Source: a virus
IMG/VR virus record: IMGVR_UViG_3300022074_000118
Coordinates: 1-40,337 of that record
Reading direction: 5' to 3' (one strand)
Length of the DNA stretch: 40,337 nt
The translations under genes and the position numbers were made by a program. Positions 18,897 to 34,262 of this stretch are shown here, piece after piece. The notes under the pieces were generated by a model that saw only the letters and a program-made list of their open reading frames with translations, was not told the origin of the DNA and did not search any database. Each line of letters begins with the position of its first letter. The stretch's first letter is position 1.

Positions 18897-20438
18897 CTAA
18901 GGCTCAACAAGCTCTGTGTCAAGCCAATTATCTCCTATTTTTAATTCAATATCGACAGGCATATCATAGTGGATACCGTACCGTCTGTGTGACTCGTCCT
19001 TGATAGACAGCATGGCTTCCTCCATCATACTGATTGCCTTACTTTCTTCGCCCGGATAGACATCCATGACGATGCTATCGTGGACGGTGTTGCATATTAC
19101 ACTGTTCATTTTGGACTGTCTTAAAAGTTTACTCAGATGAATAAGAGCGAGGGGTAACAGGTCTCCTGTAGCAAAGCCCTGAACAGGATAGTTACAGATG
19201 GCGGTGCGGTTTGTTGCGGTGCCCCACTTCGTCCACTTGGTTCCGGGGAAGTGGTACTGCCTACCGGAGGGCAGGGTTATGTAACCCCTGTCCACAGCCT
19301 GACGCTGCATCTCGTCCTGCCAGTCAGTCACAGCGGCATACTTGTCCTTGAAGGCGTTGTAGTATCGCTTCTGTGAATCAGTGCCTGTAACGCCACCGTA
19401 CAGCGGTTTAAAGGTGTGTGCCTTTGCTTCCTGTCGGCTACACCCTATGATCTCTGCAGTGTAGCTGTGAACGTCGGTTCCGGCTTTGACATCGTTATAG
19501 ATGGACTCGTCGCTGGACAGAAACCCAGCCACACGAAACTCTAGCTGACTATAGTCCCCCTCAAGTATCTTACCGCCTTCCCAGCGGCTTTTAACAACCT
19601 TACGAATAACGAATGTAGAGCCTCGTGGCATGTTCTGAAAGTTTGGGTTTCTCGAAGAAAGTCTTCCAGTCGCAGTAACACACTGCATAAACTCAGGATG
19701 AATAAAATCATCGTGATCAAGATTGTTGAACATACCGTCCACAAAATTAGACAGGTAAGTTCGAATAGCAGAGTATCGGATATAAGCTGCCACAAACTCT
19801 TTAGCTTCTCCTGACAACTCGTCAAGGCGTTGCTCAAGCGTTTCCTTGTCTGTTTTAAATCCACCTGCCGCGACATCAGCAACCCCTCTAGGGCTGATTT
19901 TAAATCCCGCAGTTTTTCCAGTATCGACATAGGTCATTCCCTTTCCGTTACACGCCGAACAAATGCGCTTGGCTTTACTGATGCTGCCATCCTTACGAGT
20001 AAAGGACACACGCCCTACACCGTCACAGTGCATACACTGAGAGCCAATCGTACGACGTATTACCGTTGTGTTATCGCTCACAGCATGTTTGAACTCGCTC
20101 TGCTTCATGCGAGTACGCATCTTCTGTTTCTTGGTTGCCCCCCGTTGCTCAGTACCTAAATTGAACAACGTCTTCCATACCTGCTTGTTGTTTACCTTAC
20201 GAGAGTAGAACAGAGCAGAACGATCATCAGGGCTATCAAGGTTGATAGGGGTATCGCCCATTGCGGCTTGAGCCATGCTTCGGAGCTTGTGTCGGAGTTC
20301 CTCTTGTTCATTTTCAAAATCCTCTTTGAGTTGTATCAGTGCCTGTCTATCTATCTTGATACCAGCGCGTTCGATGTCACACAGAACGTCTGTCATCTCA
20401 CAGGACATGAGTAGTGTGGACTGTAAACTAGAGCTCAT
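18897..20438 (-). CDS. Family A DNA polymerase with DnaJ-like zinc finger, lacking the exonuclease domain
   Basis: Five hundred thirteen residues; replicates the phage genome. A short helical N-terminus is followed by a DnaJ-type zinc finger (Cys135, Cys138, Cys160, Cys163 in two CxxCxGxG units), then the palm and fingers: TATGRLSSRNPNFQNM, motif A EGDYSQLEFRVAG (Asp295), O-helix RQEAKAHTFKPLYGG (Arg335, Lys339, Phe343, Tyr347), motif C NTVHDSIVMDV (His453, Asp454). The residue equivalent to E. coli 762 is Phe. The next position is Lys instead of Gly, and the usual HDE is HDS. The proofreading exonuclease is a separate upstream gene overlapping by 11 bases. The ATG at 20438 has AAAGGA upstream, and the frame extends further without a better start. 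Confidence 0.95.
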   Translation of the reverse strand: MSSSLQSTLLMSCEMTDVLCDIERAGIKIDRQALIQLKEDFENEQEELRHKLRSMAQAAMGDTPINLDSPDDRSALFYSRKVNNKQVWKTLFNLGTEQRGATKKQKMRTRMKQSEFKHAVSDNTTVIRRTIGSQCMHCDGVGRVSFTRKDGSISKAKRICSACNGKGMTYVDTGKTAGFKISPRGVADVAAGGFKTDKETLEQRLDELSGEAKEFVAAYIRYSAIRTYLSNFVDGMFNNLDHDDFIHPEFMQCVTATGRLSSRNPNFQNMPRGSTFVIRKVVKSRWEGGKILEGDYSQLEFRVAGFLSSDESIYNDVKAGTDVHSYTAEIIGCSRQEAKAHTFKPLYGGVTGTDSQKRYYNAFKDKYAAVTDWQDEMQRQAVDRGYITLPSGRQYHFPGTKWTKWGTATNRTAICNYPVQGFATGDLLPLALIHLSKLLRQSKMNSVICNTVHDSIVMDVYPGEESKAISMMEEAMLSIKDESHRRYGIHYDMPVDIELKIGDNWLDTELVEP

Positions 20439-20982
20439 GGTACATCCTTTCAAGTGTGGTGCCAAAGGCTTCGGCTTGTTTGATAGCGATACGTTCCGTA
20501 ACAAGAACGTCTTCTTTACCGTACTCTTCTACAATGTCGTATGGTATCTTGTCAAACGTCACACCGTCATCCAAGTAAGGTTGAACGAGGTCTTTCTTCT
20601 TGGAGCCCACTTCATACTTCTCAGCGAGGGCGGCAAGGCTGAGAGGCCAACGCCGGGAACCAGCTAAGATGTACTCCCCCACCATTGTGTCATACAGCTT
20701 GCCATCGTAAGACCAACCACACTCACGCAACCACATCAGGTCAAACTTAATGTTGTGACCAATCAACAGGTCACACCACTCAAGTGCAGAACGAATCTGT
20801 TCGAACCCACCATTAGTCGGTGTTTCCTTTTCGTGGTGAAAGCAGAGGTAGTCAACGCCTACATCAGTTATGCGTTTGTAGCCAACACTGACCAGAAGAT
20901 TCTTGAAGAATGGAGAAGGTGTCCAAGAGCCGTTTGGCTTTTTTGTTGTGGTAGTCTCCACGTCAAGAGTCACTATGTTCAT
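20428..20982 (-). CDS. DEDDy 3'-5' exonuclease (split-off proofreading domain)
   Basis: One hundred eighty-four residues. Exo I motif VTLDVETTT (Asp7, Glu9), Exo II GHNIKFDLMWL (Asp81) and Exo III EEYGKEDVL (Tyr154-x3-Asp158) define a complete DEDDy proofreading exonuclease like the N-terminal domain of T7 or E. coli family A polymerases. The gene ends inside the start region of the polymerase gene, so the two are probably co-translated and may form a two-subunit polymerase. HMO-2011, as I recall, has these domains in one chain. Confidence 0.93.
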   Translation of the reverse strand: MNIVTLDVETTTTKKPNGSWTPSPFFKNLLVSVGYKRITDVGVDYLCFHHEKETPTNGGFEQIRSALEWCDLLIGHNIKFDLMWLRECGWSYDGKLYDTMVGEYILAGSRRWPLSLAALAEKYEVGSKKKDLVQPYLDDGVTFDKIPYDIVEEYGKEDVLVTERIAIKQAEAFGTTLERMYHEL

Positions 20983-21256: not shown

Positions 21257-22488
21257 TAGTAGTAGAACCCCCTGTGAATGTCTATGTTTGCGTTTATCAT
21301 ACCGTGATATCCATTGACCTTATTCTTGGATACATTCAGGTAACGCATGTAGTTATCGTCATCAACATCTCCAGTCTTACCTATGCCGATGATAACATCA
21401 GCTTCACCAGCTTTACCTGTCCGGCTGTTATCCATCATGGAGTAGTCAATATTCATGCGGTTGTGTGCCTCATAGCTTGCTTGAGACACAGCCCAGAACA
21501 ACAGATTGTTACGTTTAGCTATCTCCCGCGCCTTGATGTATATCTCTTTGAGGCGTTCGTCACCACGACCAAAGTCTCCGTTCACGCGAAACTTATCAAG
21601 CTGGTCAGCGAACACGATATCAGGGTCAGACAGCTTACAGTATTGATCAAGCTCCTCGACAGACGAGCCAACTGAATCTACCACAGTAAGATACGGCTTG
21701 ATATCCTGTACGTACTTTTCGTTGATGACAGACTTATCTTTGACCATCTCTTGTTTTGTTAGCTTGTAGTAGCTTTGAATAATACGCAACTTAATCTTAG
21801 CGGCGGGCTCCTCGTTCGCCCAGTACGCAACCTTGTTCTTGTTCTTGATGTAAGAAGCACAGAGATGGGCACAGAACGTTGTCTTGCCTGTTTCTGGTCG
21901 GGCAAAGATTATACCCAGATTACCACGAGACATCCCCGGAAGGTTGTCCTTAATTATGTTGAGGTCAAACGGGAAGTCTACACCTCTTTCTTCGCTCTCT
22001 ATAAGTTGCATGAAATCATCCTCAAATATGGTGTAGGTCTCACTGCCTTTGATGCTGTGCTCCGACACTCTGTCTAGTATACTTTTGATTGGCGTGAAGT
22101 CAGTGGACTCACCAGTGTATATGTCAATGGCTCGTTCACCGATGACACGTGCTTGGTCTCTTGCCCAGAACTCTTCTACAATCTTACGATGTAGATCTAC
22201 GTTCTGTTCTCCTGACGGGTCACGCATCCTGTTGAATATGTCAGCCAAGTCCTCTCGACTTGACTTAGTTAGTGCAGGGTTGGATGTCAGCAACATCGAA
22301 TGAACTTCCCCTGCGGTAAGGTTCGTGGTTGCAACGTCGTGACAGTTTAGAATCGTTCTAAATACTGTCTTGGACAAACCCTCGAACATGTCCTCTGACA
22401 ATATGTGCTTCACACCGGAGTAGAAGTCGCGGTGCAAAATGAATTGCAGAATATGTTGTTCAATCGGTTTTTCTTCTGATGAACTCAT
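21256..22488 (-). CDS. DnaB-like replicative helicase
   Basis: Four hundred ten residues. N-terminal helical domain, then a RecA-type ATPase: GNLGIIFARPETGKTTFCAH (Walker A, Lys202), NEEP (switch glutamates), DPDIVFADQLDKF (Walker B, Asp295) and a downstream SQAS motif (residue about 345). It should form a hexameric ring that unwinds DNA ahead of the polymerase. The primase is a separate gene immediately upstream overlapping by 29 bases, so the fused primase-helicase of T7 gp4 is split here. A GGAAA site precedes the ATG at 22488. Confidence 0.9.
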   Translation of the reverse strand: MSSSEEKPIEQHILQFILHRDFYSGVKHILSEDMFEGLSKTVFRTILNCHDVATTNLTAGEVHSMLLTSNPALTKSSREDLADIFNRMRDPSGEQNVDLHRKIVEEFWARDQARVIGERAIDIYTGESTDFTPIKSILDRVSEHSIKGSETYTIFEDDFMQLIESEERGVDFPFDLNIIKDNLPGMSRGNLGIIFARPETGKTTFCAHLCASYIKNKNKVAYWANEEPAAKIKLRIIQSYYKLTKQEMVKDKSVINEKYVQDIKPYLTVVDSVGSSVEELDQYCKLSDPDIVFADQLDKFRVNGDFGRGDERLKEIYIKAREIAKRNNLLFWAVSQASYEAHNRMNIDYSMMDNSRTGKAGEADVIIGIGKTGDVDDDNYMRYLNVSKNKVNGYHGMINANIDIHRGFYY

Positions 22489-23245
22489 TCAGTTTTTCCT
22501 TTTCCATGTTTTTCAAATCATCTTCAAGAATAAGCATCCGGACATTCAGGTGAGGTTTGAGTGTCTGGACAGTTTTCAAGCCTAGCTTGGTTGCGTCCTT
22601 ATCTAACGCAACGTACACGGTGTCGAACTTTTTGAGTTGGACTATGTGTTCTTTGAGCAGAGACGTGCCCAGCATAGCAACGCCAGTCATCACGTGACTA
22701 ACACACGAGGCTGAAGCACAGTCCTCAACGAGCACTGCACTGGGAGCGTCTCCTGCGGTGAATAGTTGTTTTGAGTTGCCGTATCTGTACCACTTCGGTT
22801 TGGCTCCTGCAAGGGTTCGACCTACAGCATCCACCGTCTTGGCACCTTCTCGAATCAAGAACACCGCACGGTTCAATCTCTGATCATACATGAGACGAAC
22901 GGTGCGGTGCGAATAGGCATCGAACACATTGACATCTTTCATGTAACGCATAGCTGCATCACTTCGGGAGATGTCCACAAATGTGTCTGGAATTTGAAAT
23001 GAATTCAAAGGCTTGTCTGGTTCTTCGTAACGGTTACGAGTACGCAGAGGTGGAGGGTCGGCAGAGAGCCGAACCCGGAGCCGACCCTTCACAGAACAAT
23101 CAGCGTGAAAGCATTTGAATATGATATTCATCCCGTCATTGAAGGCGGCAAATGAATTCTTGTGTCCGCAGGATGGACAATCGGAGCGGTAACGTGTACC
23201 ACCCTGAATGTTCAAGGACTCAATGTAGTCGTGTATCATGCTCAT
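22460..23245 (-). CDS. DNA primase (zinc-binding plus Toprim domains)
   Basis: About 261 residues. An N-terminal zinc ribbon (Cys23, Cys26, Cys45, Cys50; CPSCGHKNSF and KCFHADC) reads the template, and the Toprim domain carries SAVLVEDCASAS (Glu174) and VYVALDKDATKLG (Asp215, Asp217). It makes primers for the lagging strand. The frame is open to a TTG at 23281, but that codon is part of a -35 box. I prefer the ATG at 23245, because related primases begin with a short residue run before YIESLNI. With a predicted transcription start near 23246 the message could be leaderless. Lagging-strand partner: the helicase gene downstream. Confidence 0.88.
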   Translation of the reverse strand: MSMIHDYIESLNIQGGTRYRSDCPSCGHKNSFAAFNDGMNIIFKCFHADCSVKGRLRVRLSADPPPLRTRNRYEEPDKPLNSFQIPDTFVDISRSDAAMRYMKDVNVFDAYSHRTVRLMYDQRLNRAVFLIREGAKTVDAVGRTLAGAKPKWYRYGNSKQLFTAGDAPSAVLVEDCASASCVSHVMTGVAMLGTSLLKEHIVQLKKFDTVYVALDKDATKLGLKTVQTLKPHLNVRMLILEDDLKNMEKEKLNEFIRRKTD

Positions 23246-23252
23246 AACCACG

Positions 23253-23281
23253 AGCATACGAGCAAATGAATTTGGTGTCAA
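23253..23281 (-). promoter_or_regulatory. Promoter for the leftward replication operon
   Basis: On the - strand TTGACA (23281-23276) and TATGCT (23258-23253) are separated by 17 bases, a good sigma70-type promoter. Initiation would be near 23246, just before the primase ATG. One copy of the AAATGAATTT motif lies in the spacer, where a repressor or activator could act. Confidence 0.65.
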
Positions 23282-23294
23282 ACGATTTTTTTTC

Positions 23295-23325
23295 TTGACA
23301 GCCCTTTGCGACCTATGGTTATACT
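23295..23325 (+). promoter_or_regulatory. Promoter for the rightward early operon
   Basis: TTGACA at 23295-23300 is followed by TATACT at 23320-23325 with a long 19-base spacer (or TTATAC with 18). It points at the small-gene operon and is divergent from the replication promoter. A dyad-like sequence, TAGGGTTCCCCAATGGG, begins at 23330, at the expected start site, and may be an operator. Confidence 0.55.
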
Positions 23326-23395
23326 CCCGTAGGGTTCCCCAATGGGATTACTCTGTTATGTAAAATAACCGTTAGCTTACCTATAGGGATACCTT

Positions 23396-23584
23396 ATGAA
23401 GGAAAGAGAGAAAAGAAAACTGTCAACCTATCATGGTCGTCTGTTTGCTGATAAAGAACAGGCAGAGCATTGGCTCGACAGGATGCGTACAAAACTAGGA
23501 GGAGACTACACCTATGAATGTAAATGGCACAAAGGACACGAACTCTGGCACGGGGTTCTATATCGAGAGCAGGAACTCAGATGA
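23396..23584 (+). CDS. Small early protein, unknown
   Basis: Sixty-two residues, the first gene after the rightward promoter. It is very basic at the start (MKEREKRKLSTYHGRLFADK) and has aromatic and His residues later (YECKWHKGHELWHGVLYREQ). No strong ribosome binding site is visible. It overlaps the next gene by 71 bases. As a promoter-proximal small gene it may act early against the host, but no motif shows this. Confidence 0.55.
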   Translation: MKEREKRKLSTYHGRLFADKEQAEHWLDRMRTKLGGDYTYECKWHKGHELWHGVLYREQELR

Positions 23585-23738
23585 ATTACTTGTCTGCTTA
23601 CACAAGGCTCGTGAAGAGACTAGGAACAAGGCGATTGATCTAGAGTGGCAGGGTCTACCTGCTGATCATTTGTGGAAAACAGTTAGAAGTATGACCGAAC
23701 GAATTGAAAATGGCGAACAGTATGAGGTGTTGTTTTGA
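23514..23738 (+). CDS. Small early protein, unknown
   Basis: Seventy-four residues with a strong AGGAGGA site upstream of ATG 23514, although this start lies within the preceding gene. The product has a Ser/Asn-rich N-terminus and a helical remainder (SDELLVCLHKAREETRNKAI; MTERIENGEQYEVLF). Its stop overlaps the TTG start of the lysin gene, suggesting coupling. If the first part is not translated, an internal start is possible. Confidence 0.55.
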   Translation: MNVNGTKDTNSGTGFYIESRNSDELLVCLHKAREETRNKAIDLEWQGLPADHLWKTVRSMTERIENGEQYEVLF

Positions 23739-24148
23739 TAACTGAAGCATTGATGTGTATGGCGATGAACATCTACCATGAAGCGCGAAATGAATCCACG
23801 ATTGGTAAGATGGCAGTTGCCCAAGTTGTAATGAACAGAATGGATGATGAACGTTTCCCAGATACAGTCTGTGGCGTTGTTTATCAGGGTGAACACACGG
23901 CATCTGGGCACCCCAAACGAAACCAATGTCAGTTTAGTTGGTACTGTGATGGGCTACCGGACAATCCGAAAAATGAATCTGCGTTTCAGGAGTCATACGA
24001 AATCGGCAAGTTCGTAGCCGAAGGATGGATGGCTGGTAACTTTGATGGGGCAACCCACTACCACGCCACCTACGTCAATCCGTCATGGTCTAGGGTGTTC
24101 ACTCATGCGGTCACAATCGATGGTCACGTGTTCTACAGATGGGAATGA
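23735..24148 (+). CDS. Cell wall hydrolase of the SleB/CwlJ (Hydrolase_2) family: probable endolysin
   Basis: One hundred thirty-seven residues. The family signature is clear: MAMNIYHEARNESTIGKMAV with catalytic-type Glu16 (and Glu19), then VVMNRM, CGVVYQGEH, and CQFSWYCDG. These enzymes cut the glycan strands of peptidoglycan, so this is the best candidate for the phage lysin. There is no signal peptide, so it needs a holin. The start is a TTG overlapping the preceding stop (TTGA) with GAGG upstream; the N-terminus it gives fits the family better than the next ATG (23753). The neighbouring genes are small and unknown. Confidence 0.88.
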   Translation: MITEALMCMAMNIYHEARNESTIGKMAVAQVVMNRMDDERFPDTVCGVVYQGEHTASGHPKRNQCQFSWYCDGLPDNPKNESAFQESYEIGKFVAEGWMAGNFDGATHYHATYVNPSWSRVFTHAVTIDGHVFYRWE

Positions 24149-24152
24149 ATCT

Positions 24153-24392
24153 ATGATGAAGCTGCCAAATGAATTCGATATCGCGGTGCTGGGTGTCAGC
24201 TATCGAATAGGCTGGGAGGACTGCATCGTCTATGACGTGAATGAAATCCTACGTATCCTGATGCAGGACATGTTAGCGGATGATGCGCTCGAACATTTCA
24301 TGTATAACATAGCCGGGTCTTACGTAGGAGAAACGACCCCAATCTTCTTGTGGGAAAGAACCATGAAGGAGATAGAGGAAGATGCAGAATGA
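24153..24392 (+). CDS. Small acidic protein, unknown
   Basis: Seventy-nine residues. I chose the ATG at 24153 (second ATG at 24156) with GGGA upstream, four bases after the lysin stop; the frame extends further but only by overlapping the lysin. The sequence (MMKLPNEFDIAVLGVSYRIG; DDALEHFMYNIAGSYVGE) looks globular and acidic at the end. Its stop overlaps the next ATG (ATGA). Family not recognised. Confidence 0.65.
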   Translation: MMKLPNEFDIAVLGVSYRIGWEDCIVYDVNEILRILMQDMLADDALEHFMYNIAGSYVGETTPIFLWERTMKEIEEDAE

Positions 24393-24583
24393 ACGTGAAC
24401 TTGGGAGATAGTCCCTGTAAGAAACAGTGCAGAGTTGATTGGGACTACGAGGCGTGTTCGACATGCGGCAGAACTTTATCTGATCTAACGAACTGGAGCA
24501 AAATGAATTTGCTTGAACGTATCCTTGCCAACGCAAAAGCAATCCGTATACTGAGGCGGATGGAGAAAATTAATGGTAGATGA
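24389..24583 (+). CDS. DUF1289-like Cys-rich small protein
   Basis: Sixty-four residues starting in an ATGA overlap. SPCKKQCRVDWDYEACSTCG followed by RTLSDLTNW matches the DUF1289 pattern (SPCxxxC ... CxxCGRTLxEIxxW), a small bacterial family with four conserved cysteines that probably bind metal. The C-terminal helix (MNLLERILANAKAIRILRRM) is basic. DUF1289 function is unknown; it is common in Proteobacteria, so this may be a captured host gene used to interfere with or imitate a host factor. Confidence 0.75.
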   Translation: MNVNLGDSPCKKQCRVDWDYEACSTCGRTLSDLTNWSKMNLLERILANAKAIRILRRMEKINGR

Positions 24584-24821
24584 ATCCAGAATAAAACGAA
24601 TTAAGGCGCGTGTGAAATATTTGTACAACCTGATTGAAGAGATGGAGAGCGAAATTGAGCAAGAAAAAAAATCAAATGAATCCTGTAGCCAAGAGCCTGT
24701 CGGAGAAGCAGAACAGACCGAAGACGATACCAGACAAGAGGCGGGAGAGTTACGACAGGTACATCGCTCGGAAGTTAAGAGAAAACTGGCGAAACTTAGA
24801 CGCAAGAAAAAAAGATATTGA
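24573..24821 (+). CDS. Charged coiled-coil small protein
   Basis: Eighty-two residues after GGAG, overlapping the previous stop by 11 bases. The first part is a long helix (VKYLYNLIEEMESEIEQEKK), then an acidic linker, and a very basic end (EVKRKLAKLRRKKKRY). A run of eight A at 24664-24671 lies after the helix, and the +1 frame downstream also looks coding, so the true product may include a frameshift or there may be two overlapping genes. Confidence 0.5.
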   Translation: MVDESRIKRIKARVKYLYNLIEEMESEIEQEKKSNESCSQEPVGEAEQTEDDTRQEAGELRQVHRSEVKRKLAKLRRKKKRY

Positions 24822-24828
24822 CGACTAA
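24676..24828 (+). CDS. Possible overlapping small protein in the +1 frame
   Basis: Fifty residues from an ATG inside an AAATGAATCC motif. The product (MNPVAKSLSEKQNRPKTIPD, then RRESYDRYIARKLRENWRN) looks as protein-like as the overlapping frame, perhaps more so. There is no ribosome binding site, which argues for expression by frameshifting at the A8 run or against expression at all. Confidence 0.3.
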   Translation: MNPVAKSLSEKQNRPKTIPDKRRESYDRYIARKLRENWRNLDARKKDIDD

Positions 24829-24881
24829 GCCCAACTCGTGCCATACCGTTTTTGTCGTTGTTTTTAACACAGGAGTAAACG

Positions 24882-25163
24882 ATGTATTACGCAGACATCA
24901 TCACCAAAGATGATTTGATTCAGGAGTTCAAGGAAGAGCGTCTGGTCGTTCGTAGGATGTTTAACAACATCAAGAGTTGCAAACACTCTATCACACAGTC
25001 TCTGCTTGCCAAGCCCCGTGATGTTCACGAGGTTGTTATCTATAAGTACTTCGAGACCAAGCGCGACAAAATTCATGGCTATTACGAGTGGACTGGTGAG
25101 AAACTCAAACTCAACAGCAAAATAGATGCGTTCGTCCATAACGTGTTCTACGGGAGAATGTAA
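24882..25163 (+). CDS. Small protein, unknown
   Basis: Ninety-three residues behind a clear AGGAG. The sequence is mixed alpha/beta with balanced charge (MYYADIITKDDLIQEFKEER; HEVVIYKYFETKRDKIHGYY). No known motif. It is separated from the preceding gene by about 53 bases, unlike the overlaps elsewhere, so it may begin a new translation unit. Confidence 0.7.
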   Translation: MYYADIITKDDLIQEFKEERLVVRRMFNNIKSCKHSITQSLLAKPRDVHEVVIYKYFETKRDKIHGYYEWTGEKLKLNSKIDAFVHNVFYGRM

Positions 25164-25164
25164 A

Positions 25165-25455
25165 GTGAGCAAGCGTGATTACAAAGAGGTAGAACTCCTC
25201 AAGCACAAACTGACCAACCGCGCTGGTGGTAGGTTTTTCAGTATAACTTTTGTCAAGGCAGATGGCTCGACCCGTAAGATGGTCTGCCGCTTGGGTGTGA
25301 AGCAACACGCCGGAGGTAAGTCATCTGACCAGTTTAACTACAGCCTGTTGACTGTGTACGATGTGCAGAAGCGTGGCTTCCGGAACATCAACCTTGAGAC
25401 TGTCCAACAATACACTGTGTCCGGTCAGACCTTTGAGCAGAAGTGGGTGCAGTAA
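25165..25455 (+). CDS. Conserved phage protein, SH3-like beta-barrel type
   Basis: Ninety-six residues starting at a GTG with GGGAG upstream, one base after the previous stop. GGRFFSITFVKADGSTRKMV, LGVKQHAGGKSSDQFN and TVYDVQKRGFRNINLETV form the beta pattern of a small phage protein family that I recall being labelled SH3 beta-barrel fold. Such proteins are widespread in podoviruses and marine myoviruses; the function is unknown. Confidence 0.75.
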   Translation: MSKRDYKEVELLKHKLTNRAGGRFFSITFVKADGSTRKMVCRLGVKQHAGGKSSDQFNYSLLTVYDVQKRGFRNINLETVQQYTVSGQTFEQKWVQ

Positions 25456-25457
25456 CG

Positions 25458-25625
25458 ATGAAAAAGTACAAACCAGTATCTGTAACAATCCGTGCTCACT
25501 ACACGTTGCACATGGAGCCGGAAGACATGGCACAACTAGACGATGGCACACCAATCACAGATTTTGATGGTTGGAACGATGAACTCGTCCAAGTTGAAAT
25601 CTACGACATCACACCGGAGGAATAG
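25458..25625 (+). CDS. Small acidic protein, unknown
   Basis: Fifty-five residues from the ATG at 25458, three bases after the previous stop; a GTG at 25443 would lie inside the upstream gene. It begins MKKYKPVSVTIRAHYTLHME, beta-like, and ends acidic (VEIYDITPEE). The following gene also starts MKKYK with the same codons, hinting at duplication of the 5' end. Confidence 0.65.
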   Translation: MKKYKPVSVTIRAHYTLHMEPEDMAQLDDGTPITDFDGWNDELVQVEIYDITPEE

Positions 25626-25627
25626 AG

Positions 25628-25819
25628 ATGAAAAAGTACAAGGTATCTTACGAACCTAGTGAAGCTGTTTACGAATACATAGTTGAAGCTGACGATGAAT
25701 TCAAAGCCGAAGACGAGGCGTATGAAATGCTACAAGAAGCAATCGGATGGGACGGGGCGAAAGACTGGTGTTTCGTTAGTGCCGAAGAAATAGACGAGGA
25801 ACAAAATGAACCACTATGA
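25628..25819 (+). CDS. Small acidic protein, unknown
   Basis: Sixty-three residues with a very good GGAGG site. MKKYKVSYEPSEAVYEYIVE then acidic helices (DEFKAEDEAYEMLQEAIGWD). High acidity and small size resemble DNA-mimic or host-takeover proteins, but this is only a compositional resemblance. It overlaps the next gene by 14 bases. Confidence 0.68.
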   Translation: MKKYKVSYEPSEAVYEYIVEADDEFKAEDEAYEMLQEAIGWDGAKDWCFVSAEEIDEEQNEPL

Positions 25820-26060
25820 AAAGGGAATTGAATTTGGCATACATCCCCGATGGGACAAGAGGGTTAACGTCTGGTGCCAAATGAAATCCACCTCGCTTGG
25901 TATTGAACCGGAGCGCGGCGAACTAAATGAATTTCCTGTACAGACAATTATCGGCGTGTTCGATGATCAATGGGGCGCAATGAATTTCTGCTCACGTCTA
26001 GCAAATGAATTTAGGAATGAATTCCGTAAGCACCTTTTTATTGACACGGTGCCCAAATGA
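25806..26060 (+). CDS. Small protein whose gene is studded with the AAATGAATY motif
   Basis: Eighty-four residues with GAGGA ahead of the ATG. The product (MNHYEKGIEFGIHPRWDKRV; QTIIGVFDDQWGAMNFCSRL) is soluble and of unknown family. The gene contains three exact copies of AAATGAATY and several near copies, one of which provides the stop codon. They produce NEF twice plus MNF in different codon registers, so the repetition is at the DNA level rather than in the protein. Confidence 0.65.
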   Translation: MNHYEKGIEFGIHPRWDKRVNVWCQMKSTSLGIEPERGELNEFPVQTIIGVFDDQWGAMNFCSRLANEFRNEFRKHLFIDTVPK

Positions 26061-26125
26061 ATTTACTTCTAGTGTTGTTGGTTGTTCGTGGCATCTTCGT
26101 TGAGGTGCTCAACCAAAAAAACTAG
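26057..26125 (+). CDS. 22-residue hydrophobic peptide
   Basis: ATGA overlaps the previous stop, and the open frame encodes MNLLLVLLVVRGIFVEVLNQ plus KN before TAG, followed by a terminator. The first about 14 residues are strongly hydrophobic. It could be a tiny membrane peptide of the early operon. No ribosome binding site beyond possible re-initiation, so translation is uncertain. Confidence 0.35.
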   Translation: MNLLLVLLVVRGIFVEVLNQKN

Positions 26126-26160
26126 TCGGAGTTTTTCCCTCCTTTCTCCTCCGGCAAGTG

Positions 26161-26199
26161 CCCCGCTCGGTTCTCCCACTGGGCGGGGTTTTCTTTTTT
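26161..26199 (+). terminator. Rho-independent terminator of the early small-gene operon
   Basis: CCCCGCTC pairs with GGGCGGGG (one G-U) across a 12-base loop at 26161-26188 and is followed by a T-rich tract to 26199. It ends the 23.4-26.1 kb operon and isolates the next cassette. Confidence 0.9.
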
Positions 26200-26254
26200 G
26201 TTTGACGTAAAATGAATAATCGGCTACGCCTTGATTATTGAAAGTGAGGAACCC

Positions 26255-26911
26255 ATGCAATTAACTGGTACACGTTTTGAGAAAGCCCGACGCGACTTGT
26301 CGGCTTATCCTTATTCATTATTAAAACACCCCAAGCCTAAAAATAAACTGGGGCGCAAAGTAACAAAGGGCGAGTTTGCCGGATACCGTGTCTATTCCCT
26401 GACACTGGAAGAACGCGCCACATGCCCGACAACGTGCGAACGCTGGGGGGACTGCTACGGGAATAACATGCCATTTGCCCACCGCTTGCAGCATGGCGCG
26501 GAATTGGAGCGCAGACTGCCGGATGAGATAGCCGCACTATGCGCCAAGTATCCGGACGGGGTACTTATCCGGCTTCACGTGCTGGGTGATTTTTATTCGC
26601 CGGAATATGTGCAACTTTGGGGCGAGTTATTGGCAACGCATCCAAACCTTGCAATCTGGGGGTACACGCACCGCACCGATCCGGCTTGTGATATCCATAA
26701 GGCCATTGTGCGAACCAAAATGAATTTTGGCGTACGCTTTTTTATTCGATGGTCTGACGTGCCCAACGTGCCGGATAGTGCCAGCCATGAAACAATCGCC
26801 GCGCCGGACGCTATCACTTGTCCGGAGCAAATCGGCAAGACAAAAAATTGCGCCGCTTGCGGTCTCTGCTGGAACGCCGCCGCCGAAAAAATCCGATTTA
26901 TTCATCACTAA
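26255..26911 (+). CDS. GP88-like Cys-rich protein
   Basis: Two hundred eighteen residues. ATCPTTCERWGDCYGNNMPF near residue 50 and CPEQIGKTKNCAACGLCW near the C-terminus hold two cysteine clusters; the middle (VLIRLHVLGDFYSPEYVQLW; WGYTHRTD; FFIRWSDV) resembles the core of phage GP88-type proteins. The cysteines could hold a metal or Fe-S centre. The family's biochemical role is unknown to me. I chose the ATG at 26255 with AGGA upstream over a TTG at 26231. Codon use is much richer in G+C than in the neighbouring genes. Confidence 0.75.
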   Translation: MQLTGTRFEKARRDLSAYPYSLLKHPKPKNKLGRKVTKGEFAGYRVYSLTLEERATCPTTCERWGDCYGNNMPFAHRLQHGAELERRLPDEIAALCAKYPDGVLIRLHVLGDFYSPEYVQLWGELLATHPNLAIWGYTHRTDPACDIHKAIVRTKMNFGVRFFIRWSDVPNVPDSASHETIAAPDAITCPEQIGKTKNCAACGLCWNAAAEKIRFIHH

Positions 26912-26979
26912 TAACTTGCGCCCGATACCAAATCAGCGCACAGTTTGTTTGTCGTTAATTTTTGAGAAAGGTTAAAACG

Positions 26980-27939
26980 ATGACTATTCAAGTATTCGAA
27001 CATAAGGACTTGAGCAATCTCGACGCTTTTGTCGGGTGCCGAACATTCAAGGCACCGATCCACACAACACGGGGCGAACTGGTGCCGGATTATTACGCAT
27101 TGGTAAATGAGAACGGCGAACCATTGCCAGCCCGCCCGGTCTCTAAAAGCTACAAGCTAGTGAGCCATCTTGAGATGTTCCGGCAACAGGCCGAACAGCT
27201 TGCGGATAGCTCTTTGCCGACTGCCAATGTGTCGGTTAAGGATACCGTGCTAGACGGGGGGCTTCGCGCAACCCGTGAGGTACATTTTGACGACGTGCGG
27301 CTGGATATGCCCTGCGGTCGTCTTACTGACCCGATGGTCGCCCGCATGGACACAATTAACAGCGTTGATATGTCGTGGGCTTTTCAAGCCTTCGCGGGGG
27401 CATATCGTAGCTATTGCCGAAATACTCAGGTATTCGGCGGCGAGAAGGTCTATCACGCCAAGCGCAAGCATACCCGCAATCTGTCGCCGGAAAGCATAAC
27501 GGCAAATAGCATTGTCGGGCTGGACACGTTCCACAATAACCGCGATTATTTTAACCGCATGAGGACGGTTGATTTAAGGCCGGACGAATGGCGGGAAATC
27601 ATGGAACAAACCCTGTGCCATAAGCAAGGGCGGGGTGCTGCCGAAACTACCGACAAAGCGGCAAAGGTCAACGTCGCATTGCTGGGTCAGATGATGACCC
27701 GCTACGACCAAGAAAGCGCGGACTTAGGGTCTAACATGTGGGCGGGGTACAATGCCCTCACCGCATGGTCTACACATGTGGACAAGGACGCAAACTGGCT
27801 GGATGAAGACGGGAACGAGAAAAGCCGGAAAGCCCGAACTACTGACCCAAACAGGGTGCCCCATGTTCAGATGCAACGCCAGAACCGTGTTCGTGACGTG
27901 CTTAACAGCACGGCATGGGCGCAGAAATTGGCGGCATAA
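26980..27939 (+). CDS. DUF932 (phage/plasmid-like TIGR03299) protein
   Basis: Three hundred nineteen residues from an ATG with AAAGG upstream. Features of the DUF932 family are visible: PVSKSYKLVSHLEMFRQQAE, the central TINSVDMSWAFQAFAGAYRS with YCRNTQVFGG, and the C-terminal WAGYNALTAWSTHV and QNRVRDVLNSTAW. This family is carried by phages and plasmids, often near antirestriction and replication genes; no enzymatic activity is known to me. In this window it sits within the G+C-rich cassette. Confidence 0.8.
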   Translation: MTIQVFEHKDLSNLDAFVGCRTFKAPIHTTRGELVPDYYALVNENGEPLPARPVSKSYKLVSHLEMFRQQAEQLADSSLPTANVSVKDTVLDGGLRATREVHFDDVRLDMPCGRLTDPMVARMDTINSVDMSWAFQAFAGAYRSYCRNTQVFGGEKVYHAKRKHTRNLSPESITANSIVGLDTFHNNRDYFNRMRTVDLRPDEWREIMEQTLCHKQGRGAAETTDKAAKVNVALLGQMMTRYDQESADLGSNMWAGYNALTAWSTHVDKDANWLDEDGNEKSRKARTTDPNRVPHVQMQRQNRVRDVLNSTAWAQKLAA

Positions 27940-27941
27940 TC

Positions 27942-28022
27942 GTGGGGGATTTGCTTGCTATCATTTATAAAACTTTACTTTGCATAATTGCCCTTGTTAT
28001 TCTGGGCGCGTTAATCAACTAG
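27942..28022 (+). CDS. Possible 26-residue membrane peptide
   Basis: GTG at 27942, two bases after the DUF932 stop, opens a frame encoding VGDLLAIIYKTLLCIIALVI then LGALIN and TAG, one hydrophobic helix. No clear ribosome binding site. Similar in kind to the peptide at 28887-28964, which supports it mildly. Confidence 0.3.
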   Translation: MGDLLAIIYKTLLCIIALVILGALIN

Positions 28023-28037
28023 AAAGGAACTAACGCC

Positions 28038-28334
28038 ATGACACAATTCAAACTCAACCAACCAGCACCGGAACGCTTTGCGTCGGACGTGCTGGACAAC
28101 CGCGACGAAGTAATCGAAACCCGCAAGGCGGTCATCCGTACGCTGGGCTATACTCAGGTACAGCTTGCCGACGCAACGGGGTGCGGTGCGGTAACAATCA
28201 ATAGCTGGCTGAACAACAGCAAGAGCACACGCAACGGGGTGCGGGTACGTATCGCCAATGCTCTGTTGCTCCGGTATATTGAGAAGTACCAACCAACGGC
28301 ATTGGACACTTTGCCGCCATTTCGCAACTTGTAA
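28038..28334 (+). CDS. Small helix-turn-helix DNA-binding protein
   Basis: Ninety-eight residues behind AAAGGA. Residues about 35-75 (GYTQVQLADATGCGAVTINS then WLNNSK) form an HTH of the Cro/XRE style: helix 2 TQVQLADATG, turn, recognition helix AVTINSWLN. The N-terminus is a linker. It could regulate its own cassette or be a phage early/late switch, but it has no dimerisation domain that I can see and no cognate operator is proven. It is the only HTH regulator apparent in the window apart from TerS. Confidence 0.65.
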   Translation: MTQFKLNQPAPERFASDVLDNRDEVIETRKAVIRTLGYTQVQLADATGCGAVTINSWLNNSKSTRNGVRVRIANALLLRYIEKYQPTALDTLPPFRNL

Positions 28335-28347
28335 GGGGGGGCACATT

Positions 28348-28617
28348 ATGACTGTTAACAAGATGGACAGCGTAGGTAATGTTCAACCTATCGAGACGCG
28401 CAACGCTTGGGGCTATCCCGACAGGGACACGCTCCGGCTTAACGCCAATCAGACCCAATCGCTCCGGCGGGTCATTGCCCACTATATGCCAAGCGAAACT
28501 ATACACTGGGAAGAAAGCGGCGAACCAGCCGACCACGTTTATTCTGACTTGGTGGTGTTGCGCTGGGCAATTCGTGAGCATGATAACGTGGGCACAATGG
28601 GGGCAAATCATGAGTGA
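28348..28617 (+). CDS. Hypothetical cassette protein
   Basis: Eighty-nine residues with an AGGGGGGG ribosome binding site. Contains RDTLRLNANQTQSLRRVIAH and EPADHVYSDLVVLRWAIREH, helical and soluble. G+C-rich codon usage as in its neighbours. Overlaps the next gene by 8 bases. No family recognised. Confidence 0.6.
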   Translation: MTVNKMDSVGNVQPIETRNAWGYPDRDTLRLNANQTQSLRRVIAHYMPSETIHWEESGEPADHVYSDLVVLRWAIREHDNVGTMGANHE

Positions 28618-28894
28618 CATCTACTTAAACGCTAAAGCGGCGGGGGTACTGGTCGAGGTGCTAGACTTCATTATTGACGACACTTACCAGACGCCGAAAC
28701 TCACCCCAACAGCCGCCAGACTATCCGCACAGTACTTGCGCGGGGAACTGGACGAGACCAAGCAAGACGAGTACCGCATAAAACTTGCGGGGGCACACTC
28801 CCTGCTGGAAGCATTGCGAGCGGTGCCTGTTGGTCACGACGCGCTTGCGCCCGTGTCAAACCTCGACGACTATCGGGGGGCTGACCATGATTAG
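28610..28894 (+). CDS. Hypothetical helical cassette protein
   Basis: Ninety-four residues, ATG preceded by GGGGG. Mostly helical (MSDIYLNAKAAGVLVEVLDF; AHSLLEALRAV) with an acidic end (SNLDDYRGADHD). It overlaps both neighbours, so it is translated as part of a coupled series. Unknown function. Confidence 0.6.
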   Translation: MSDIYLNAKAAGVLVEVLDFIIDDTYQTPKLTPTAARLSAQYLRGELDETKQDEYRIKLAGAHSLLEALRAVPVGHDALAPVSNLDDYRGADHD

Positions 28895-28964
28895 CATCGC
28901 CGGACTGCTTCTAGTCGTTTCTATTGCGTTTCTTGTCTGGCTGATTATTGAGGAGTACCGATAG
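28887..28964 (+). CDS. 25-residue single-transmembrane peptide
   Basis: An ATG overlapping the preceding stop, with CGGGGGG six bases upstream, encodes MISIAGLLLVVSIAFLVWLI then IEEYR and TAG. The strong ribosome binding site, coupling and perfect hydrophobic helix with a charged end support a real micro-protein. Possible roles are small holin/antiholin or membrane partner of another cassette protein; none is shown. Confidence 0.55.
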   Translation: MISIAGLLLVVSIAFLVWLIIEEYR

Positions 28965-28997
28965 CCAGCAACACTTCGGGAACCTCCCGCCGAGAAG

Positions 28998-29027
28998 CCC
29001 TCCAGCTTAACCGCTGGGGGGTTTTTT
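28998..29027 (+). terminator. Rho-independent terminator of the G+C-rich cassette
   Basis: CCCTCCAGC and GCTGGGGGG form a 9-bp stem (one G-U) with loop TTAACC at 28998-29021, followed by six T. It closes the 26.2-29.0 kb cassette. Confidence 0.93.
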
Positions 29028-29387
29028 CGTGGGCACGGGGGAATAATACCTAGCGGGCTGTTATCGCTCTGTTATCACGTTGTGTGGCTTGTCGGGGATA
29101 ATGCGCCGATGTGCGCCCGACGGTGCACTTTTAGGGGGTGGGCACTGGGGTCAAATGAATTCGCTTGCTGTCTCGCGCATGGGCACGGGCGCGTAAGCCC
29201 TCAAGTAGCACGGCGGGACACTATCGGGGGTTATGGCGGGGAAACTGCGAGGCCACGGCATCACCGATGGGGAAATATATTTGTGACCGACTAGGGCGGG
29301 CAAGGGCCACCCCACCCCCCAGTACATTTACATGCAATCCAGCCATATTTTTTGTAGTTTTAGGGGTGTGACATTTGTGCAACCGTC

Positions 29388-29476
29388 GCAACATATAGGG
29401 AGACCCTCCAGTTTCCCAATAAAAAACCCCCACTGGGATCAGTGAGGGGTCCAATCTGCAACATTTAGGGTACCCT
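29388..29476. repeat. Two-copy GCAACATWTAGGG repeat with dyad
   Basis: GCAACATATAGGGAGACCCT (29388-29407) and GCAACATTTAGGGTACCCT (29458-29476) are direct repeats 70 bases apart, each holding an AGGG/CCCT dyad. They flank the hairpin terminator at 29427-29449 and are candidates for binding sites. Confidence 0.6.
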
Positions 29477-29519
29477 ATAGGGGTCTAGGAGGATATGGTG
29501 TATCTCCCGGCGGGTTACT
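29420..29519 (-). ncRNA. Predicted approximately 100-nt phage small RNA with anti-Shine-Dalgarno element
   Basis: A consensus promoter on the - strand and a rho-independent terminator 70-odd bases downstream bracket a short transcript with no useful reading frame. About 25-35 nt from the predicted start the RNA contains UCCUCCU, complementary to AGGAGGA ribosome binding sites, followed by a small hairpin (ACCC-CUAUA-GGGU) and the terminator stem. A similar CCUCC-rich loop is known from regulatory small RNAs of Alphaproteobacteria. Ends are predicted, not observed. Confidence 0.6.
29421..29449 (-). terminator. Rho-independent terminator on the - strand
   Basis: CACTG/CAGTG plus CCCC/GGGG with one bulged A and a four-base loop (29427-29449) is followed on the - strand by six T (29426-29421). 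It points away from the small RNA promoter and ends that transcript. Confidence 0.8.
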
Positions 29520-29524
29520 CCCTG

Positions 29525-29553
29525 AGTATACATGTGGATTTCGCGTTTGTCAA
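29525..29553 (-). promoter_or_regulatory. Strong sigma70-type promoter on the - strand
   Basis: TTGACA (29553-29548), 17-base spacer, TATACT (29530-29525): five of six -10 bases and all -35 bases match the consensus. No gene lies downstream before the terminator at 29421-29449, which suggests a non-coding transcript starting near 29518. Confidence 0.75.
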
Positions 29554-32468: not shown

Positions 32469-34262
32469 ATGGCAGAGAAACGACTAACATCAGCGCAAAA
32501 ACGTAATCTCACATTACGAGGTCTTTTCGAACTTGAGGGTTCTCAGAAAGAAAACGTACGCGCAGAAACCGGGCGTTTTATAAAAGAGCTTGAGGGAGTT
32601 GTAGACCCTGTATCAGGACAGAATGTCTTGGATATGAAAGTTCAAGATATGGATGTCGGTCAAGTTGTAGGCGACGTAATTGAAAAAAGTAAGTTTGGTA
32701 TTAGCGACGCTGAAAATAATCCGGAAACACGCACCCGGAGTCAGGGTTTAATTGTTCGACTTAAAACAATGTTTGGTGGAGCGGGATATCCTACAGACTA
32801 TGTCAACAAAGAAGTTCAAAACTATTTAGGTGAAGACGCTTACGAGGCAAACACTAAAATGAGTTTGTTCAGGGCGCGTAAAACACTTTTAGGGCTTCCT
32901 GACGATATTTATCCAAAATTAAAAACTGTATTACAAGACCCCAATTTACCTCAAGACACAAAGCTACAGTTTTCTGCACACTTATTTGGGGGCTTCCGCC
33001 CAGCTACTCTTAAAGAATTTGACATTAAAAACTTTGATGCTCAAAAGGGGATAATCTCTGTATATGATGCTAAATCTAAAAAGACAAAGGTAACTGTACT
33101 CAATCCTGTTCTTGTCGATATATTTAAACAAGCATCCGAAGGGCGTAAAACTGGGCCAATATTTTTGGATGTCACCAGTAACACTAAAATTATTAATGAT
33201 AGATTAAAAAATGTTGTTGGAGAAGTATCTTTTTTAAAACCTTCAGGGAATATTGAGAAAGAACAATTTTCTGTATATAAACTTCGCAATATGAATGAGA
33301 CTTTGCTCTCAGAAACAGGATTAAATACAGAGGATACTGCATTTCTAAGTGGTAGGGCACAAGCCACAGAAGCGGGAGGGTATGTAACTCAGAAAAGCCG
33401 TAAACGTAGAGTAGATCGTGCGGGACAAGAAGTAGTTGCAAAAATTATCGGTTATTCTGGCGACGCTAATCCTGCTCAATTTGGAGCAGATACTGGTTTA
33501 AAACTAAGTGCCAAATCCAAAAATATACCCATCTTAACAAGTCTTTTAGATGACGAGGATTACGTAAAAGCATTGCCGGAGGGCTTTTTAGAAAGTCTAC
33601 CTGAAGAAGGTCAAGCACCCACAGGAAAAGCTGCAGAAGCTGATCCAGAACTAACAGAACAACGCCGTCTACAAGCCTTAGAAGAAAGCCGCAAAGTTAC
33701 AGAAGCGGCGGGACTTGAGGCCGATGATTTAGAAAGGGAGCGTCGCCGCCTCGCATTAGAGCAGCCTGAACTTACTGAAGAAGAAGCGTTGCGGTTGGCT
33801 CGTGAACGCGCAACCCGACAACAGGCAACTCAACAAGTTAAACAAGAGAAAAAGGCTGAAACCACCGCCGCTGAAAAGCAGCAAGCACGAGAGGATGTAA
33901 AAGGGTTTTTTGAACGAGCTAACGAGGCTCTATCTAAGCTCCCGCCACCTGTTAAAAAAGCAATCCCTATCGCTGGCACCGCCGCTAGTTTACTTGCTGC
34001 CGACGCAAAACGACAAGAAGCAAAGGCGGCTGCTGAAGAGGGTCGTCCCATAGTAGCAGCTTTACGAGGGGCACAAGCGGTTGAAGAAGTCGTTAGCCCA
34101 CTGCCTTTTACCACTGGGGACGTTGAAGATTTGGTTGTTACAGAGAGAACACCACAAGAAGAAGAATTTTTACGTGCACAACGAGAAACACGCGCAGAGC
34201 GTATGGGAGCACGTAGAGAAAGGGCTGCATCTGCCCAAATGGATGCACTAATGTCAAAATAG
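32469..34262 (+). CDS. Tyrosine-recombinase-like domain fused to a long helical tail
   Basis: Five hundred ninety-seven residues. Residues about 90-150 look like a core-binding domain, and 160-310 match a tyrosine recombinase catalytic domain: SAHLFGGFRPATLKEFDI (box I Arg177), SVYDAKSKKTKVTVLNP (Lys204-207), SVYKLRNMNET (box II Arg273, with Tyr270 at the His position) and LSGRAQATEAGGYVT (Arg296 at the LGH His, nucleophile Tyr305 at the standard +9 spacing). Residues 385-480 are Glu/Arg-rich coiled coil and 490-545 an Ala-rich, weakly hydrophobic stretch, unlike any integrase. It lies between the terminase and portal genes. It may be active, or reused as a structural fold. Confidence 0.65.
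   Translation: MAEKRLTSAQKRNLTLRGLFELEGSQKENVRAETGRFIKELEGVVDPVSGQNVLDMKVQDMDVGQVVGDVIEKSKFGISDAENNPETRTRSQGLIVRLKTMFGGAGYPTDYVNKEVQNYLGEDAYEANTKMSLFRARKTLLGLPDDIYPKLKTVLQDPNLPQDTKLQFSAHLFGGFRPATLKEFDIKNFDAQKGIISVYDAKSKKTKVTVLNPVLVDIFKQASEGRKTGPIFLDVTSNTKIINDRLKNVVGEVSFLKPSGNIEKEQFSVYKLRNMNETLLSETGLNTEDTAFLSGRAQATEAGGYVTQKSRKRRVDRAGQEVVAKIIGYSGDANPAQFGADTGLKLSAKSKNIPILTSLLDDEDYVKALPEGFLESLPEEGQAPTGKAAEADPELTEQRRLQALEESRKVTEAAGLEADDLERERRRLALEQPELTEEEALRLARERATRQQATQQVKQEKKAETTAAEKQQAREDVKGFFERANEALSKLPPPVKKAIPIAGTAASLLAADAKRQEAKAAAEEGRPIVAALRGAQAVEEVVSPLPFTTGDVEDLVVTERTPQEEEFLRAQRETRAERMGARRERAASAQMDALMSK

What the first reader, a model, noticed from the sequence alone, without database searches (positions are those of the whole stretch)
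22437..29162. A one-orientation interspersed motif, AAATGAATY, confined to the early region
Seen: 14 exact copies, 10 of them AAATGAATTY, all in the same orientation on the + strand, all between 22437 and 29162, with further near copies. For a 9-mer of this information content fewer than one copy would be expected in both strands of the window. Copies lie in - strand genes (primase, helicase), + strand genes in several reading frames (as NEF/NES, MNF/MNL), over stop codons and in intergenic DNA. The protein therefore cannot explain them. The outer bases are symmetrical, so a dimeric DNA-binding protein is possible, but the fixed polarity of the central GA suggests a directional role: primase start or replication-direction site, recombination or packaging polarity, or an RNA element. 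Three copies follow TTGAC boxes (23276, 26041, 26202), one inside a promoter spacer. I know of no described phage system of this kind.
Basis: partly seen in the sequence, partly recalled or inferred. Interest (0 to 1): 0.82.

Follow-up and report, generated by a model that had tools for sequence, protein, structure and literature searches.

The report
Dispersed one-way regulator sites in phage
A ten-letter DNA word, always pointing the same way, is sprinkled through and kept by selection in the early genes and start signals of a group of marine-type phages, most likely as landing sites for an unknown phage switch protein, and related phages each use their own different word.

Summary
In detail: 14 AAATGAATY, all on the + strand, 22437-29161, against 1.1 expected on both strands; synonymous-codon nulls never reach 14. 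It is not peculiar to this genome. In 17 contigs of the same HMO-2011-type clade (primase 60-100% identical) there are 114 copies in one genomic orientation and none in the other. Selection acts on the DNA: codons AAT-TCA stay frozen in primase, one site is kept in a shifted reading frame, and a non-coding site is footprinted. The site sits in the spacer of the leftward early promoter in 10 of 14 contigs that span it, next to the -35 box in the other four, and around the rightward promoter in several. Distant relatives lack this word, but several groups carry their own: AAACCGAC, AAACGTAC, AAGTACGC, TTTTGTCA. Best reading: dispersed operators of a phage-encoded early regulator, analogous to L5 stoperators or SPbeta SPBRE, but mostly inside genes and not aligned with transcription. 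The reader protein is unidentified; the proposed HTH protein is weakened, and an RHH-like protein of relatives is absent from this clade.

The parts
23264..23272 (+). AAATGAATT inside the 17-bp spacer of the leftward early promoter P_L (operator)
   Evidence: spacer copy in 10 of 14 contigs spanning the region, the other four keep the word next to the -35 box
23253..23281 (-). P_L, sigma-70-like promoter TTGACA-17-TATGCT for primase/helicase block
   Evidence: 10 of 12 matches; conserved in relatives
23293..23325 (+). P_R, rightward early promoter (TTGACA..TATACT), back to back with P_L; in L010-L012 a motif copy lies in its spacer
   Evidence: read directly; one search did not list it
22437..22445 (+). 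motif copy, in helicase gene (antisense)
   Evidence: also in L001-L003, degenerate in L004/L005
22997..23005 (+). motif copy, in primase gene (codons NSF, antisense)
   Evidence: a word copy is also present here in L011 although the aligned protein differs
23150..23158 (+). motif copy, in primase gene (codons N32 S33 F34)
   Evidence: AAT-TCA frozen in 8 of 8 sequences with Ser
23788..23796 (+). motif copy (..AATC), cell-wall hydrolase gene
23971..23979 (+). motif copy (..AATC), cell-wall hydrolase gene
24167..24175 (+). motif copy, start of gene 24153-24392
   Evidence: conserved in L002, L003, L151
24501..24509 (+). motif copy, gene 24389-24583
24674..24682 (+). motif copy (..AATC) over the start codon of small ORF c24 (about 24673-24828)
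   Evidence: in L002-L005, L010-L012
25826..26064 (+). dense cluster: exact copies 25925, 26003, 26055 and near copies 25826, 25879, 25978, 26015, in and at the end of gene 25806-26060
   Evidence: cluster conserved in L001, L005, L012
26202..26218 (+). TTGACGTAAAATGAATA: near copy beside the -35-like box of the second early operon
   Evidence: absent at this promoter in L005
26718..26726 (+). motif copy in GP88-family gene; K-M-N-F here, Q-N-E-F in L012 (other reading frame)
29153..29161 (+). motif copy in non-coding DNA between the early operon terminator and terS
   Evidence: AAA[TC]GAATTC at the same place in five contigs amid poorly conserved DNA

Best explanation
The copies are dispersed asymmetric binding sites, about one helical turn long (consensus AAAYGAATTY), for a sequence-specific DNA-binding regulator, most likely phage-encoded, that controls the early region. 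Shown: non-random, one genomic orientation, maintained by selection on the DNA, present in the divergent early promoters P_L/P_R and scattered over the genes they drive. Inferred: the regulator represses P_L/P_R by occupying the -35/-10 spacer, while the intragenic copies either hinder elongation or help build a multi-site complex over the early region. Different groups of HMO-2011-type phages would have diverged in site specificity, as heteroimmune phages do. The reader protein is not identified, and the meaning of the fixed polarity is not explained.
For: Counts and nulls. 114: 0 orientation in 17 contigs, 208 kb. Primase: of 114 invariant residues only 14 are codon-identical, 0 of 5 invariant Ser and 0 of 5 invariant Phe, yet AAT-TCA at N32-S33 is frozen in all 8 sequences with Ser there. 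Same word in a different reading frame in the GP88 gene. Non-coding footprint at 29153. Promoter placement: motif core in the P_L spacer of 10 of 14 contigs, next to the -35 box in the others, P_R spacer in L010-L012, second early promoter in window and L001. Relatives carry other words: AAACCGAC 28, 25 and 23 copies in about 40 kb with 0-5 reversed-pattern controls, AAACGTAC 41 copies (expected 5.4) in 55 kb.
Against: No reader found. HTH 28038 is missing from L012; o24882 has homologs in phages without the motif and no fold match. No lysogeny gene is evident in the early region of this clade. Most copies are intragenic, and 4 of 14 oppose the local gene, unlike stoperators. In RHH-bearing relatives the few divergent promoters inspected lack the lineage word in their spacers. 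No binding or expression data.
Confidence: 0.55

Rival explanations
1. Iteron-type replication sites: the copies are direct repeats bound by a phage initiator; the dense cluster 25826-26064 or the P_L/P_R region is the origin, and the outlying copies titrate or handcuff the initiator.
For: Uniform orientation regardless of gene direction is what iterons show; seven exact and near copies in 240 bp, partly conserved in L001, L005, L012; cumulative GC skew has a local minimum near 22-23 kb; no initiator or helicase loader was recognised.
Against: Copies are spread over 6.7 kb with irregular spacing, sit in promoter spacers, and no initiator-like protein is found; other relatives have comparable words genome-wide, including structural genes.
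Confidence: 0.17
2. Sites of a host-encoded regulator or nucleoid protein recruited by the phage.
For: No phage reader found; the clade could share a host lineage.
Against: The word follows phage clade closely and related phages carry different words; no known host factor with this consensus comes to mind (own knowledge).
Confidence: 0.12
3. Polar genome-orientation signal (for example a fork- or translocase-steering site, or a DNA-entry or packaging polarity signal) acting along the early end of the genome.
For: Fixed genomic orientation over two oppositely transcribed blocks, 114 of 114 copies in 17 contigs; confinement to the early region.
Against: Promoter-spacer placement is unexplained; in the AAACCGAC lineages orientation changes between blocks.
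Confidence: 0.1
4. Chance, codon bias or common descent without selection.
For: Codon nulls give up to 10 copies because N-E-[FS] residues are common here; the three ..AATC copies are weaker.
Confidence: 0.02

Closest known systems
Operator/stoperator system of Cluster A mycobacteriophages (L5 gp71 type)
   Same: Short asymmetric sites, more than 20 per genome, in early promoters and dispersed downstream; lineage-specific motif sets that diverge with the repressor (PMC9283540, PMC6550527).
   Different: There 13 bp, mostly short intergenic spaces, orientation follows transcription and reversal abolishes repression; here 10 bp, mostly inside genes, orientation fixed to the genome, no such repressor found.
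SPbeta repeated element SPBRE and its repressor MrpR
   Same: Repeated phage-wide element first seen in silico, located in promoters, bound by a single master repressor (PMC10516654).
   Different: 15-bp motif, intergenic; reader has a tyrosine-recombinase fold. The recombinase-like part of window gene 32469-34262 is not shared by motif-bearing G005.
Phage P1 C1 operators
   Same: From own knowledge: many asymmetric operators scattered over one phage genome.
   Different: Longer site, C1 has no counterpart recognised here; not tested.
Iterons of phage lambda ori / iteron plasmids
   Same: From own knowledge: direct repeats bound by an initiator, sometimes inside its own gene.
   Different: Tandem and regular there; irregular and dispersed over 6.7 kb here.

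Membership tests
HMO-2011-type phages | Helicase, primase and DNA polymerase homologs in the group's gene order | tested here: met
   Best phage-record matches of the helicase are HTVC033P, CRP phages and HMO-2011; shared gene set with nine relatives
[quoted passage not shown]
   CMHCDGVG and CSACNGKG in 18897-20504; exonuclease part is a separate ORF, also in G005. DnaJ domain itself not searched
Cluster A stoperators | Many dispersed asymmetric sites with copies in early promoters | tested here: met
Cluster A stoperators | Orientation follows the direction of transcription | tested here: not met
   22437, 22997, 23150, 23264 oppose the leftward helicase/primase block; all copies share one genomic orientation
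Cluster A stoperators | Sites mainly in short intergenic spaces | tested here: not met
   11 of 14 in coding DNA
Cluster A stoperators | About 180-residue repressor with HTH plus stoperator domain | tested here: not met
   Only a 98-aa HTH_3-like protein found among the early proteins scanned, itself missing in L012
Cluster A stoperators | Repressor confers immunity; reversing a site abolishes repression | not testable with these tools
   needs experiment
SPBRE/MrpR | Reader with tyrosine-recombinase fold conserved with the sites | tested here: not met
   Recombinase-like domain of 32469-34262 (PF00589, E 0.008, below cut-off) is not in G005, which has 9 sites
RHH-protein operators | RHH gene present with the sites | tested here: not met
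   RHH-like family next to c24 in most relatives; no hit in window clade with hmmsearch --max
Iteron replication origin | Cluster of direct repeats and a cognate initiator | tested here: inconclusive
   Cluster 25826-26064 present; no initiator recognised; model of 25806-26060 protein too weak, pLDDT 63

The most novel reading that the evidence does not exclude
A family-wide, previously undescribed control code: several groups of HMO-2011-type phages each write their own short word many times into their genomes, including inside genes and, in this clade, in a genome-fixed polarity independent of transcription, read by a fast-evolving phage protein of an unrecognised DNA-binding class in this clade.
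Probability: 0.25. Interest if true: 0.8.

Novelty: new variant of a known kind. Interest (0 to 1): 0.58.

Why it matters
HMO-2011-type phages are described as a dominant marine viral group (PMC9038755), and the two papers on the group that were searched do not mention a repressor. The finding gives a concrete set of predicted operators in the P_L/P_R region, a list of candidate readers and a natural experiment (different words in sister groups) with which to find the early switch and test whether related phages are mutually immune. It also separates site orientation from transcription direction, which the stoperator model ties together.

Tried and rejected
HTH 28038-28334 as reader: absent in L012, recognition helix diverged while the motif is constant. 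o24882 (24882-25163) as reader: present in all motif contigs that reach it, but its wider family occurs without the motif and its model (pLDDT 80) has no fold match. o25806: present wherever the contig reaches, weak model. Recombinase-like 32469 protein: not shared by G005. RHH regulator: absent from this clade; in relatives its N-terminal arm broadly tracks the word, but L160 and L171 share the arm and only L171 has AAACCGAC, so it is unproven as reader there too. Motif as a -35-like element: no matching -10 spacing seen downstream of the intragenic copies (inspection). Prophage relatives: none found in genome contigs. Rfam: no match. Motif discovery in the first 14 kb of HTVC033P, HMO-2011, CRP-235 and CRP-1 gave no strong word.
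Full report
Observation. The pattern AAATGAATY occurs 14 times, all on the + strand between 22437 and 29161, and nowhere else in the 40,337-base virus record. Dinucleotide shuffles give 1.1 copies for both strands, maximum 4. A synonymous-codon null, which keeps every protein and leaves non-coding sites in place, gives 4.1 (codons permuted within genes) or 2.5 (codons redrawn from genome usage) on the + strand, never more than 10, and none on the - strand of the early region, in 2000 runs each. Relaxing the pattern to [ACG]AAYGAATYY gives 17 on + and none on -.

What the genome is. The helicase matches HTVC033P, CRP and HMO-2011 phages best among phage records, and the polymerase carries the two CXXCXGXG motifs used to define HMO-2011-type phages (criterion in PMC9038755). 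Genes run leftward from primase (23281 down to about 12300) and rightward from 23396 to 28964, so the motif region is centred on a divergent promoter region.

Relatives. Primase homologs were collected from viral contigs. The clade with primase 60-100% identical to the window (L001-L012, L151), plus L300, L302 and L305 found with other early proteins, carries 114 exact copies in one genomic orientation and none in the other over 208 kb, window included. Relatives with primase 48% identical or less have none or a stray one or two copies.

Selection acts on DNA. In nine aligned primases 114 residues are invariant but only 14 are codon-identical; none of the five invariant serines or five invariant phenylalanines is. 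Yet N32-S33 is AAT-TCA in all eight sequences that have serine there, and the next codon is TTT in seven of those eight. This is where the 23150 copy lies. In the GP88 gene the 26718 copy reads K-M-N-F in the window and Q-N-E-F in L012: the DNA word is kept, the frame and peptide are not. The non-coding copy at 29153 is matched by AAA[TC]GAATTC at the same place in L300, L305, L012 and L005 within poorly conserved DNA. Site positions also turn over between lineages, as expected for binding sites.

Promoters. A sigma-70-like promoter on the - strand, TTGACA-17-TATGCT at 23281-23253, drives primase; the 23264 copy fills its spacer. A strict search finds the motif core in this spacer in 10 of the 14 contigs that span it; L007-L009 and L151 have the word next to the -35 box but a weaker -10. 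L010-L012 carry a further copy in the spacer of the rightward promoter, and L004, L005, L010-L012 and L151 a copy between the two -35 boxes. The window and L001 have AAATGAATA beside the -35-like box of the second early operon; L005 does not.

A wider pattern. Several groups of more distant relatives have their own words: AAACCGAC (28, 23 and 25 copies in G026, G034, G025; reversed-pattern controls 0-5), AAACGTAC (41 in G023, 29 in G027), AAGTACGC, TTTTGTCA. For other relatives no strong word emerged. Within blocks the AAACCGAC copies are largely uniform in orientation; in G026 they agree with transcription in the early and replication blocks except for a few, but in the structural block they mostly oppose it (the automatic gene-strand assignment uses the longest ORF and is rough). 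AAACGTAC is mixed. So orientation does not follow one rule across the group.

Who reads it. In most relatives outside the clade a 65-98 residue RHH-like protein (only weak PHROG and Pfam support; RHH is my reading of the sequence) follows the small ORF c24 right next to the divergent promoter. Its N-terminal arm broadly tracks the word, but with shared ancestry and an exception (L160 versus L171), so it is only a candidate. The window clade keeps c24 but lacks this protein. HTH 28038, o24882, o25806 and the recombinase-like protein 32469 were considered and are weak or excluded.

Mechanism. I take the copies to be operators plus dispersed secondary sites of an early regulator (0.55). Shown are non-randomness, polarity, DNA-level selection and promoter placement. 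Inferred are repression, a phage-encoded reader and the role of intragenic copies. Iterons are the main rival (0.17); a host reader (0.12) or a polar genome signal (0.10) remain possible.

Comparison. L5 stoperators are 13-bp asymmetric sites whose orientation follows transcription and whose reversal abolishes repression (PMC9283540); their motifs diverge between lineages (PMC6550527). SPBRE is a 15-bp element found in silico and later shown to be bound by MrpR (PMC10516654). The present sites work like these at most; they fail the orientation and intergenic criteria, so they are not filed as members. A search of PMC9038755 and PMC6918029 found no mention of a repressor in this phage group; integrases occur in some subgroups and CRP-3 integrates, while other subgroups have no identifiable lysogeny gene.

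Limits. All sequences are computed or metagenomic; several contigs are fragments; contigs L002/L003, L004/L005, L007-L009 and L010/L011 are near duplicates and L001 is very close to the window, so independent lineages number about seven. The three ..AATC copies (23788, 23971, 24674) are less certain than the ..AATT ones.

Noticed in passing
L013-L218, G023-G034: Several groups of HMO-2011-type relatives have their own interspersed words (AAACCGAC, AAACGTAC, AAGTACGC, TTTTGTCA), up to 41 copies per genome.
   Followed up: partly
window 24573-24828: Two overlapping ORFs in different frames (24573-24821 and c24 about 24673-24828) are both conserved; c24 (NPxAKxL...PDKR) is present in nearly all relatives and precedes an RHH-like gene there.
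   Followed up: partly
window 18897-20982: DNA polymerase is split into a separate exonuclease ORF (20428-20982) and a polymerase ORF; the same split is in G005, whereas HMO-2011 has one gene.
   Followed up: partly
window 29418-29553, - strand: Strong leftward promoter (TTGACA-17-TATACT) followed about 80-100 nt later by a terminator hairpin: a possible small RNA, similar sequence in L300, L305 and L005; fold z-score only -1.3, no Rfam match.
   Followed up: partly
window 32469-34262: Protein between large terminase and portal with a weak tyrosine-recombinase-like N-terminal part (PF00589, E 0.008) that is replaced in G005, whose protein shares only the C-terminal part.
   Followed up: partly
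L135 1-1220 (contig IMGVR_UViG_3300009108_000002, 74727-75946): Unrelated array of about 36-37-bp units with conserved GATTCATTY and GNTACTNT separated by variable DNA in a 141-kb viral contig.
   Followed up: no
L254-L298: Protein o24882 belongs to a wider family of small viral-contig proteins (motif HGYYxWxG) that occurs without AAATGAATY.
   Followed up: partly
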